DNA from: Gammaproteobacteria bacterium
GTDB taxonomy: Bacteria; Pseudomonadota; Gammaproteobacteria; UBA6429; Thiohalophilaceae
NCBI GenBank assembly: GCA_024275115.1
Contig: JAJRZT010000021.1
Span: 1-64,000 of the forward strand
Length of the DNA: 64,000 nt
Direction: 5' to 3'
Positions 2,101 to 7,788 of the stretch are shown here, piece after piece. Every line of letters starts with the position of its first letter. Position 1 is the stretch's first letter. The notes under the pieces are model-generated. The model was given only the letters and a program-made list of their open reading frames with translations, did no database searches and was not told where the DNA came from. The translations under genes were made by a program, and so were the position numbers.

Positions 2101-2199
2101 AATACCCACAACGTGTTAACTTGAAAAAGGTTTTTTCGTTGTGTACCCAAAGCACTTCGTGGGGCAGGCTCTTCGTCGTGCCCGTTGTGGTTAAAAAAA

Positions 2200-2421
2200 C
2201 TAAACCAACGCCTCTAAAGCCAAACTCAGGTAATCCTCAATTTCTTTTTTGTACTTTAAGTAATGAAAGGTTTGCAAATACCGCATATCCATATCAAGCA
2301 GGCTCTTCGATAAGTCTATATCAGTAATATAGATAGGATACTTTGCACCACTACGGCGCTTATTAAGAATATGTTTTGCAACTTCAACATATAACTTTTC
2401 GCCAAACTCCAATGAACTGAA
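2200..2421 (-). pseudogene. Disconnected C-terminal part of the adenylate cyclase (same frame, after the TAA at 2422-2424)
   Basis: Reverse strand reads GGC CAG TAA TTC AGT TCA TTG GAG TTT GGC GAA; FSSLEFGEKLYVEVAKHILNKRRSGAKYPIYITDIDLSKSL..LQTFHYLKYKKEIEDYLSLALEALV resembles the tail of gammaproteobacterial class I cyclases. Confidence 0.75.
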
Positions 2422-5055
2422 TTACTGGCCTTCACAATAAATAGTAAAGACAACGGCACCGTCTACTTTATCACCTATTACCTGCAAGCTAATGTATTTA
2501 GATGGCCGCACATAGCGGTTAATCGCATGTTGTTCTAAATAGGACCCCTCAAAATCTGAAGATTCTATTTTGTAGAACTGCACCAGCTCAGCCACTGCCT
2601 GATTGTCTTCAATCGCATTTAAAAAATTCATTCGTTTATGTACAGATGAAAAAAACTGTTGCAGGTGCTTCACTAAACTATAAACATCATGAAAATCATC
2701 CTGCTGATAAAACAGTGTTCCCTTCTCATCCAGCACGTAGATCATGGCACTTTTATTCTTAACGCGGTAAAAACATTGCACCACACCGGGCTTGTTAACA
2801 CTATATATAATAGGCAAATCCGAATCTTTATCTGCCTCAATATCAAACTCGGTTAAATAAAACGTTGATTGTGGTGCAGACAAATGTTCCAGCAAGCGCT
2901 CTAAAGTGCCCGCCGCATAAAATTTTAAGTTATCATCTTCTATCTGCAATAAGTAATAGTCCCATTGCACGCCAAGTATATATTGTTTGGCAATATTAGT
3001 TGGCTGCGTATAAAAGAAGGCTATCACCTGTTCAAAAACATTTTCTATCCGCAAAGCAATGGATGGGCCACGATAGGATGAATAGCTATGCGCATTAATT
3101 CGCGGCGGGCGCTGCCCTTTAGACGGCGGCGACCACTGTAAATAATCTCGCAAACAATTCATTAAGCCTTTTACACCAAAATAGCGAAAGGTCAGAACTT
3201 CCTGCCAACTGGTTACAATTACCTGTTCAATGCTGAGTGCTAGATTTTCCCACATGCCGCCAAAACGTAAGGCATCGGTTCGGTTGCTGGCAATTTGTTG
3301 GCCTTTTTTTGTGTAGTCAGAAAATGGATCAACGCCGAGATTAATATAAGTACCCACGGCACTGACTTTTGCAGGGCGGCTAAAGTCATGGAACGATGCA
3401 TTTTGTAAATGCTCGTCTGGAAATAATTTTTCCATGCTTTGGATGGTTTGCAAAATTTCACGTTCAGACAGATCACTTTTACCTGCATATAAGGCAATAA
3501 TAGTATTATGGTTAAATAGTTTATTAAAAAAGCACCAGGTTATTAACTCCATTAAATCATAAGATCGTTTAATGGGTGAGCGTACCGCTATTTCTTTTTC
3601 GTCAACAATGCCGCTAAATATCATCCAGGATTCAGTATTATCATCCCCAAAAAATTGATGAATAGACAAATGGCTTTCATATAAATTTTTTGTAATCCCC
3701 TGATGAATAACATCTATTTTGCCAGCCTTACGCTCAAAGGCAGCATATAATTTTCGCCCCAGTACGTTTAAGTCTGACTGCTTGATGAAATGACTGTCGA
3801 TACTCGACTCACGTGCAAAGTCTGATAAAAAGTGGTAGCTGCGAGTAAATTCATCAATTAAGATAGCGCGTTCTTCCATCACATGATTCACATTCCATTC
3901 ATTGCGACTGTCTAGCAACACCAGCTTACCGCTAGGCCATGCCCATTTTTTTACACGTTCAATAAGTACTTCAACTCTCCAGTCATTTTTATTTGATGCA
4001 CCTTTCGATTCATCACTGAGAGCAATGTCCACTTTAAAATAAAAACTCCGCCGCACCAGCTCCAGGCGATCCATCTCATTTTGCTGAATAAGATACTGCT
4101 CCACTTTATCCAGCATCATTAAGTAAGGGTCGAGCGAATTAATATCAATATTATCTTCATACACGGCACGCTTATAACGCAGCGCTATCATTTCAATATC
4201 CGGGTATTCCCATGCATACGCCTGCATCAGTAATATTTTCAGAATGGATTTATACGGTGAATTAATACCTTTATATAACAGCCATAAGCTTGCACCATAA
4301 AATTCTTCTGCCGGGATTCGATTTAAGCCGCCAAAATCAATATGCTCATGCGCATGCATAAAACGCTGGCGTTGGAATTCTTCCACCATTTCATCGTATT
4401 GCTCTTCTTTATCTGGTGGAATCAACCACCATGCAGGATAACGCCCGGCCAATAATAAACTGGTGCGATAAAATTCTTCAAGCAATAAATAATGCAGCGC
4501 ACTGCCCGAACTTTCTGAACTCAGCTGGCCAATTTCACCACGTTTAAATTTAACCGGATCAACCAGATAAATATTGGCCTCAACCCCCAGTTCTCTTGCC
4601 CATTCTTCCACAGCTTTGGCTTTATTTTGTAACTCTTCAATCTGCAGCGCAGTCAAATTACTTTCATGGCATATCCAGATGTCAAAATCACTTTGTTTTG
4701 AATAGGCAATACTGCCACTGCTACCCATCAGATAAATCGCCAGAATTTCAAACTTCCAATAGGCGCGTTTTTTAAACTCAAAACTTCTAAAATGTTTTTT
4801 TATACGGCTTATTGATGATGAGCTGACACTATAATTTGGAATACCCGCAGGTGTTGCCTTGCTCACATAGCCAGGCAATATAGGATGATTAACGTGAAAC
4901 AGCACCGGCAGCAGTTCGACAAACTGGCGCTGAGTTTGCCGCATATCGGCAAAACTACGGCTTAAACGCTGTGCATTTAGCTTTTCGAAGCGCTGTTTGA
5001 TGTCCTGATAATAGCGCTCTTCACCCAATTTGGGAGTTATTTTGGGACTTCTCAT
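2422..5055 (-). CDS. cyaA: Class I adenylate cyclase, C-terminally truncated by an in-frame TAA
   Basis: 877 aa; YLMGSSGSIAYSKQSDFDIWICHES nucleotidyltransferase motif; ends ..FTIYCEGQ-stop and the same frame continues FSSLEFGEKLYVEVAKHIL.. Confidence 0.9.
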   Translation of the reverse strand: MRSPKITPKLGEERYYQDIKQRFEKLNAQRLSRSFADMRQTQRQFVELLPVLFHVNHPILPGYVSKATPAGIPNYSVSSSSISRIKKHFRSFEFKKRAYWKFEILAIYLMGSSGSIAYSKQSDFDIWICHESNLTALQIEELQNKAKAVEEWARELGVEANIYLVDPVKFKRGEIGQLSSESSGSALHYLLLEEFYRTSLLLAGRYPAWWLIPPDKEEQYDEMVEEFQRQRFMHAHEHIDFGGLNRIPAEEFYGASLWLLYKGINSPYKSILKILLMQAYAWEYPDIEMIALRYKRAVYEDNIDINSLDPYLMMLDKVEQYLIQQNEMDRLELVRRSFYFKVDIALSDESKGASNKNDWRVEVLIERVKKWAWPSGKLVLLDSRNEWNVNHVMEERAILIDEFTRSYHFLSDFARESSIDSHFIKQSDLNVLGRKLYAAFERKAGKIDVIHQGITKNLYESHLSIHQFFGDDNTESWMIFSGIVDEKEIAVRSPIKRSYDLMELITWCFFNKLFNHNTIIALYAGKSDLSEREILQTIQSMEKLFPDEHLQNASFHDFSRPAKVSAVGTYINLGVDPFSDYTKKGQQIASNRTDALRFGGMWENLALSIEQVIVTSWQEVLTFRYFGVKGLMNCLRDYLQWSPPSKGQRPPRINAHSYSSYRGPSIALRIENVFEQVIAFFYTQPTNIAKQYILGVQWDYYLLQIEDDNLKFYAAGTLERLLEHLSAPQSTFYLTEFDIEADKDSDLPIIYSVNKPGVVQCFYRVKNKSAMIYVLDEKGTLFYQQDDFHDVYSLVKHLQQFFSSVHKRMNFLNAIEDNQAVAELVQFYKIESSDFEGSYLEQHAINRYVRPSKYISLQVIGDKVDGAVVFTIYCEGQ

Positions 5056-6264: not shown

Positions 6265-6891
6265 CTATCCATCATCAACAAGGTGTGCCATAAATTTGGT
6301 AAAGGGCACAATATTTTGGTTCACGCTCGCTTCTTCAAGTGCAGCCATGTAACTATCACGTTTTTCCACTGGGACAATAGTCCATGGATAGCCGCCACTC
6401 GCTAACATTGTATTCATTAAAAAGCGCCCCATGCGACCATTTCCATCCATATACGGATGGATATATACAAAAATAAAATGTCCGAGTACCACACGCACGG
6501 AGGCTTCCGTTTCTTCACGGAGTAAATCAAAAAGTGCTGGCATAGCATCGCGCACTGCTTCACAGCTTGGCGGTACATGCATTGAGCGGCGAATATAAAC
6601 TGGCGCGTTACGGTAACCAGCAAGATCAGCAGGTTGCAAAATACCTGCTGTCACACCAGGCGCAAACATTTCCCGATACCAGGCTCGATGGGCATCATCC
6701 GCGACAGTCCCCGCATTTTTGCCTTGTAATACTTTTTCAACACTATCACGAACTTGTTGATAAGCTTGCCAATAGCCACGTGCTGCCAATGCATTTTTGT
6801 GTTCGCGATCTTCTGGATTATCATCTGGCTCCCAATTTCCGCTGCGAACCCGCTCAATCAACTCCAAACTTACACGGTAGCCCTCAATTGA
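6265..6891 (-). pseudogene. Fic-domain protein, 5'-truncated (ORF-track call 6265..6867)
   Basis: Fic motif HPYMDGNGRMGR; in-frame codons upstream of the called start (LSIEGYRVSLELIERV) look like family sequence, but a TGA lies about 30 nt further on and no N-terminal domain is present. Confidence 0.7.
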
Positions 6892-6896
6892 TAAGG

Positions 6897-6915
6897 AAAG
6901 TAAGATAAGGGGTCA
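6897..6915. repeat. 19-bp direct repeat copy 1 (AAAGTAAGATAAGGGGTCA)
   Basis: Identical to 6973-6991. Confidence 0.9.
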
Positions 6916-6972
6916 AATCGCTTGTTAAACAATATAGACTCCGGCTATGAGCAAAAGGTGACAGAACTATTT

Positions 6973-6991
6973 AAAGTAAGATAAGGGGTCA
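6973..6991. repeat. 19-bp direct repeat copy 2 (AAAGTAAGATAAGGGGTCA)
   Basis: Identical to 6897-6915. Confidence 0.9.
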
Positions 6992-7096
6992 GGATAAAGA
7001 GAGGGACACTGATAACTTAATAGCTTTAGTCTTTTTAAAGAATAAAAGGTTGCCACCAAGCCTTGCTCTTAAGCAAGACTTTTTTATTTTAAACGA

Positions 7097-7788
7097 TTAA
7101 CAAAACTGTTTCATTTTTATTTCAAGTTCAGCTAATCCATTTTGATAAACCCCAGGAAAGCGATCCACGGCCATGGCTAAATCTTTAACCGCGGGCTCAA
7201 TCCATGTCATGGCCTCTAAAATATCGTCGTGTTGTTGTGCTAAATCTTGCCAATACCAAATCGGCTCATGATGAAAAATCCGATTTCACAGCCGCCTGAT
7301 TTTATTAAAACGCGGGCTAAGGTTTTGTCGAGTACGCCGTGTTCGCGGCATGGCTGGGAAAGCAGTTTTAATAATACTCGGCCACAGTATTTGCTCATAG
7401 CGTTTATCAAACAAGCTTGTCCAGAACCCAAAATTTAACTCAGCAATGAGCCGACCTGGCTCTAAGGTCTTTTTTTGGCGTAGTAGAGATTGCTTTGCTT
7501 TGTCGATAGAGCGTTGATCGCGTGTGTGAATAATTTTGTTATTATCAAACCAATCATCCTGACCAAAATGTGCCGTAGCCGCTTGATGAATGGTATTACG
7601 TAAACCTATTTCCAAGAGCTGCAAGGTGGGGTAAAGACTCTCACTGAGGGCAACATTCCACGCATAATGGCTAAATAAATTAGGTCGCCATTATTAGAGG
7701 CTAATTGCTGCTGATAAGCCTCTAACCGCTCATTTGACAGTACTTGTTTTAGCTTATTTGCAAAGTCCGCTTGCATAAAAGGTTCCAT
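7097..7788 (-). pseudogene. Abi-family (abortive-infection-like) protein gene with two frameshifts
   Basis: Segments in successive frames: MEPFMQADFANKLKQVLSNERLEAYQQQLASNNGDLI / NLFSHYAWNVALSESLYPTLQLLEIGLRNTIHQAATAHFGQDDWFD..LWPSIIKTAFPAMPRTRRTRQNLSPRFNKIRRL / NRIFHHEPIWYWQDLAQQHDDILEAMTWIEPAVKDLAMAVDRFPGVYQNGLAELEIKMKQFC-stop. Confidence 0.8.

What the first reader, a model, noticed from the sequence alone, without database searches (positions are those of the whole stretch)
2200..2435. In-frame TAA cuts the regulatory tail off a class I adenylate cyclase
Seen directly: the reverse strand reads ..ATT TAT TGT GAA GGC CAG TAA TTC AGT TCA TTG GAG TTT GGC GAA.. with no frame change. The codons after TAA encode FSSLEFGEKLYVEVAKHILNKRRSGAKYPIYITDIDLSKSL..QTFHYLKYKKEIEDYL, which from memory resembles the C-terminus of gammaproteobacterial CyaA. 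A single change (e.g. GAA or CAA to TAA) would explain it. In E. coli the CyaA C-terminal part is regulatory, so truncation could leave an active but deregulated enzyme. The tail still looks intact, which suggests a recent mutation, a sequencing error, or readthrough.
Basis: partly seen in the sequence, partly recalled or inferred. Interest (0 to 1): 0.7.

Follow-up and report, generated by a model that had tools for sequence, protein, structure and literature searches.

The report
Recent nonsense mutation in adenylate cyclase

Summary
On the minus strand a TAA at 2424-2422 ends a class I adenylate cyclase (cyaA) after 877 codons. The frame then runs 73 more codons to a TAG at 2202-2200. These 73 residues are the normal C-terminus of the long (~950 aa) class I cyclases. 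Of 60 loci read through this site (some the same genome fetched twice), none outside the window's own genome has a stop; 55 have Glu (GAA/GAG). Both congeners (93% and 89% identical) read GAG and are open to the end. The tail has stayed under selection on this branch (11 silent: 2 replacement changes; body 130: 30), so the stop is very young or an assembly/consensus error. The window otherwise looks well assembled.

The functional reading needs correction. Homology with E. coli CyaA (848 aa) ends at window residue ~830, and its C-terminus falls at ~872-880. The lost tail therefore lies beyond the E. coli protein, whose regulatory region is retained here. None of 40 family genomes encodes EIIA-Glc, so E. 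coli-style loss of glucose control does not apply. Most likely: a recent private nonsense allele leaving an active, perhaps mis-tuned or unstable enzyme. Readthrough is unlikely. Low interest.

The parts
2422..5055 (-). cyaA, class I adenylate cyclase, truncated open frame of 877 aa
   Evidence: ATG start shared with congener G002
4426..5007 (-). Adenyl_cycl_N catalytic domain (PF12633, residues 17-210), intact
   Evidence: E 3.6e-69
4675..4728 (-). nucleotidyltransferase-like signature MGSSGSIAYSKQSDFDIW (residues 110-127), intact
   Evidence: M110, G111, S112, G114, S122, D123, D125, I126, W127 invariant in 33 sequences
2557..4347 (-). Adenylate_cycl domain (PF01295, residues 237-833), intact
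   Evidence: E 4.6e-124
2422..2424 (-). premature TAA (codon 878) at a position that is Glu in nearly all relatives; at the start of predicted strand 877-880
2200..2421 (-). homologous tail after the stop, 73 codons plus native TAG; long-form-specific C-terminus (end of strand 877-880, helix 881-899, strand 912-915, helix 929-950 predicted)
2104..2194 (.). dispersed repeat with terminal inverted repeat TTAACCACAACG, inserted between the convergent stops of cyaA and the esterase gene
   Evidence: absent from the same junction in G002, where the two genes overlap by 4 bp

Best explanation
A recent nonsense mutation, private to this genome among those held, turned a conserved Glu codon (878) of a long-form class I adenylate cyclase into TAA. 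The cell then makes an 877-residue enzyme with the complete nucleotidyltransferase-like catalytic half and the whole region shared with E. coli CyaA. It lacks the end of the last hairpin strand, both helices and the final strand of the terminal alpha/beta module that is specific to ~950-residue cyclases. Shown: the stop, homology of the tail, intact catalytic signature, selection on the tail until recently, and where E. coli CyaA ends. Inferred: that the DNA change is real rather than a consensus error, that translation stops there, and that the product is still catalytically active but with altered stability or control. CRP is still encoded, so cAMP signalling is presumably still in use.
For: No relative shares the stop; 55 of 60 loci have Glu there and both congeners are open to the native stop. 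Tail selection on this branch equals the body: 11 silent: 2 replacement against 130: 30. Neutral drift over 10% of the branch would give <=2 replacements with P about 0.001 or less. Of 37 other window genes with an ortholog in G002, none is interrupted; one differs by 3 codons at its end. Catalytic domains score far above cut-off. E. coli homology ends before the stop. The predicted fold puts the stop at the start of strand 877-880 of the terminal module. A true CRP is encoded (NF008732, 354 bits against a 266 cut-off).
Against: The genome is an 83%-complete draft and no reads could be examined, so a consensus error is not excluded. Both congeners read GAG, so TAA is two changes away from them (one if this lineage had GAA, the commoner Glu codon here: 771 vs 234). 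No biochemical data were found for a long-form cyclase without its tail. Tail conservation (mean majority share 0.60, against 0.41-0.51 for residues 461-877) suggests it matters, so the product could also be unstable or inactive.
Confidence: 0.62

Rival explanations
1. Sequencing, assembly or population-consensus error: the real codon is sense and the protein is full length.
For: Draft genome, 115 contigs, 83% complete. The tail is intact and selected exactly as expected if nothing had happened. The stop is seen in only one assembly.
Against: No other interruption in 37 orthologous window genes, so the error rate looks low. The codon differs from both congeners at two bases, and a single error explains only one of them.
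Confidence: 0.2
2. First step of gene loss: the truncated enzyme is unstable or inactive and cyaA is decaying, as happened elsewhere in the family.
For: 6 of 22 good-quality genomes of the family have no class I cyclase, including two at 100% completeness. The lost tail is well conserved and the stop cuts a predicted module.
Against: Body and tail show no relaxation yet; there is no second lesion; a true CRP is retained. E. coli CyaA works without any such tail, although it belongs to another subfamily.
Confidence: 0.12
3. Translational readthrough or re-initiation supplies the tail (full-length minority product, or a separate ~70-residue peptide from TTG at 2412).
For: The tail keeps its coding constraint. 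A survey finds many in-frame stops in bacterial genes with dN/dS below 1 (PMC7918605). A TTG lies 9 bases after the stop.
Against: TAA followed by T is not a leaky context (general knowledge), and 38 of 52 window genes end in TAA, 10 of them TAAT. No stop-reading tRNA among those found, though the set is incomplete. The stop is not conserved in any relative. No Shine-Dalgarno sequence at a useful distance from the TTG (by eye).
Confidence: 0.06

Closest known systems
Long-form class I adenylate cyclases (NCBIfam PRK09450.2 series, mostly models of 949-956 aa, e.g. NF006984)
   Same: Alignment runs along nearly the whole 877 residues (16-877 on model positions 20-879 of 956). Congeners and most family members have open frames of about 950-980 aa with the same tail.
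   Different: Its score (939.5 bits) falls below that model's curated cut-off (1300), so it belongs to a branch without a model of its own. This copy stops 73 residues early.
E. coli CyaA (848 aa, short form, PRK09450.1 series)
   Same: Same catalytic signature and 31% identity over residues 15-830.
   Different: E. coli CyaA ends where the long-form terminal module begins; it has no counterpart of the lost tail. Its EIIA-Glc control partner was not found in this family.
In-frame stop codons in otherwise conserved bacterial genes (Belinky et al. 2021, PMC7918605)
   Same: Single in-frame stop, no other decay, dN/dS far below 1 after the stop.
   Different: Single genome only; conservation of the stop among strains could not be tested.

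Membership tests
Class I adenylate cyclase | PF12633 (N-terminal) plus PF01295 above gathering score | tested here: met
   233.2 and 415.6 bits against cut-offs of 27
Class I adenylate cyclase | conserved GSxG...SDxDIW nucleotidyltransferase-like signature | tested here: met
   MGSSGSIAYSKQSDFDIW, invariant columns in 33 sequences; the best PDB fold matches of the congener model are nucleotidyltransferases, but weak, E >= 1.4e-3
Class I adenylate cyclase | conversion of ATP to cAMP | not testable with these tools
   needs expression and assay
Long-form (about 950 aa) subfamily | C-terminal module after residue ~850 ending in the YPIYITDIDLS...YKKxIE tail | tested here: not met
   present in the DNA (2200-2421) but placed after the stop; full length in congeners
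Long-form (about 950 aa) subfamily | NCBIfam equivalog cut-off | tested here: not met
   best NF006984, 939.5 bits against 1300
E. coli-type glucose-regulated CyaA | EIIA-Glc (PF00358) encoded in the genome | tested here: not met
   0 of 40 family genomes, own included, while the E. coli control is positive
Pseudogene | relaxed selection (dN/dS near 1) or multiple lesions | tested here: not met
   dN/dS about 0.035 in body and tail; one lesion
Programmed readthrough gene | stop conserved among relatives | tested here: not met
   no relative has a stop there; conspecific strains not available
Programmed readthrough gene | full-length product detected | not testable with these tools
   needs proteomics

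The most novel reading that the evidence does not exclude
The long-form terminal module is a control device of class I cyclases in bacteria without EIIA-Glc, and this genome carries a natural, selected C-terminal deletion that frees the enzyme from that control.
Probability: 0.1. Interest if true: 0.4.

Novelty: new member of a known kind. Interest (0 to 1): 0.13.

Why it matters
As an event it is a routine nonsense allele in a draft genome. Its main use is as a pointer: many class I cyclases are ~950 aa, with a well-conserved C-terminal module that E. coli CyaA lacks, and in this family no EIIA-Glc was found. What that module does is open, and this natural truncation suggests where to cut to test it.

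Tried and rejected
Tail as a repeat of earlier modules: profile-profile comparison of residues 455-599, 600-682, 683-750, 751-850 and 851-951 gave nothing. Solved relatives: none by sequence. By fold, only weak nucleotidyltransferase matches for the N-terminal half, and insignificant actin-like/RNase H-like matches for the C-terminal half (best E 8e-3, TM about 0.1), not used. The viral structure library gave no useful match: one E 2e-5 hit with TM 0.06 was discarded. Stop shared by relatives: no. Suppressor tRNA: none among the tRNAs found, incomplete genome. Stop caused by the neighbouring repeat insertion: no, the repeat lies beyond the native TAG. Sister genome G001: no cyaA found; its esterase gene is followed by repeats up to a contig end, so loss cannot be told from a gap. 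Rfam: nothing in the window. Viral contigs: no relative. Literature on a long-form cyclase C-terminus: nothing found in the library.

Full report
What is there. On the minus strand an ATG at 5055 opens a frame of 877 codons that ends in TAA at 2424-2422; the same frame continues for 73 codons to TAG at 2202-2200. Pfam places PF12633 on residues 17-210 and PF01295 on 237-833, both far above cut-off, so this is a class I adenylate cyclase. The genome is a draft of 2.5 Mb in 115 contigs, about 83% complete, with this single class I cyclase. Named relatives are Chromatiales and other gammaproteobacterial metagenome-assembled genomes.

The stop is private. I collected 60+ homologous loci from relatives and from GTDB genomes and read the codon at the stop in each that covers it. 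Apart from the window's own gene, which was fetched as two overlapping loci, all are sense: 29 GAA, 26 GAG and single AAG, GGG, CGA, ACT and TTA (some genomes are counted twice because two searches fetched them). The two congeners, 93% and 89% identical, both read GAG and are open to the native stop, with tails of the same length. The tail is about as conserved as the body in these comparisons. TAA therefore differs from the congeners by two bases, or by one from GAA, the commoner Glu codon here (771 GAA to 234 GAG in the window's main genes).

How old. Pairwise dN/dS is about 0.035 in body and tail alike. Changes private to this genome are 11 silent and 2 replacement in the tail, against 130 and 30 in the body. 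A Poisson estimate says that drift without constraint over even 10% of the branch would very rarely leave so few replacements (P about 0.001 or less). The stop is thus very young, or it is not real, or the tail is still made. A three-sequence comparison with silent sites near saturation is a rough clock, and I use it only in that sense.

Is it an error. No reads are available. Of 37 other window genes with an ortholog in congener G002, none is interrupted (one ends three codons earlier), so the window looks well assembled. A real mutation is favoured but an error is not excluded; I give the latter 0.2.

What is lost. Aligned with E. coli K-12 CyaA (848 aa), BLAST homology covers residues 15-830; in the multiple alignment E. 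coli residue 840 falls at 872 and residue 848 at 880. Past residue 830 this alignment is loose. The NCBIfam models show the same split: short models of 807-850 aa (PRK09450.1) and mostly long models of 949-956 aa (PRK09450.2). The 73 lost residues belong to the long-form extension and have no E. coli counterpart. Features assigned to E. coli CyaA control, namely the EIIA-Glc site near residue 609 and the glycerol-3-phosphate effect linked to its last 48 residues (PMC7382830), and the inhibitory C-terminal domain of Crasnier et al. 1994 as cited in PMC7735965, map to the retained part. EIIA-Glc (PF00358) is not detected in the own genome or in 39 others of the family, while the E. coli control is positive. 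A true CRP is present.

Fold. AlphaFold2 on the intact congener protein with 33 sequences gives mean pLDDT 86 and pTM 0.78; the C-terminal 352 residues alone give 87 and 0.85. The terminal module is strands 857-864, 867-874 and 877-880, helix 881-899, strand 912-915, helix 929-950. The stop leaves the first two strands and removes nearly all the rest, so the remaining half-module is probably disordered (inference). The catalytic half is untouched. No solved structure matches the C-terminal half convincingly.

Mechanism and rivals. Most likely the cell makes an 877-residue cyclase that is still catalytically competent but of altered stability or control. Early gene decay is a fair rival, because 6 of 22 good-quality genomes of the family lack any class I cyclase. 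Readthrough has little support: TAA followed by T, no stop-reading tRNA found (incomplete set), and no conservation of the stop. Belinky et al. (PMC7918605) report that single in-frame stops with dN/dS below 1 are widespread in bacterial genes and that many are short-lived, which fits an ordinary transient allele.

Verdict. Observation confirmed; interpretation partly supported; ordinary in kind. The open point worth keeping is the unknown role of the conserved long-form C-terminal module in a family where no EIIA-Glc was found.

Noticed in passing
window 2104-2194, and 35 exact ends in the own genome: A dispersed element with terminal inverted repeats TTAACCACRACGRRCACG..., often paired about 60-480 bp apart and, in several copies read, close after a stop codon; some copies carry a nested AGAGCCTGCCCCACGAAGTGCTTTGGGTACAC piece or CATTGCGAG-type repeats. 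35 ends here, 7 in congener G001, none in 38 other family genomes. It split the overlapping stops of cyaA and the esterase gene seen in G002. It looks like a non-autonomous (MITE- or REP-like) element; no transposase was sought.
   Followed up: partly
window 6265-7788, minus strand: A short Fic-domain frame (PF02661) and, by eye, pieces of a possible abortive-infection-like gene spread over several frames (no Pfam match), in a stretch for which no G002 counterpart was found; looks like decayed accessory genes.
   Followed up: partly
family of the window's genome: Class I cyclase is patchy: absent from 6 of 22 good-quality genomes, including two of 100% estimated completeness from one genus.
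   Followed up: no
L171 (G001:C60) 1513-1739: In congener G001 the esterase gene is followed by a run of CATTGCGAG/GCGGCAATCTTG repeats up to the contig end, where G002 has cyaA.
   Followed up: partly
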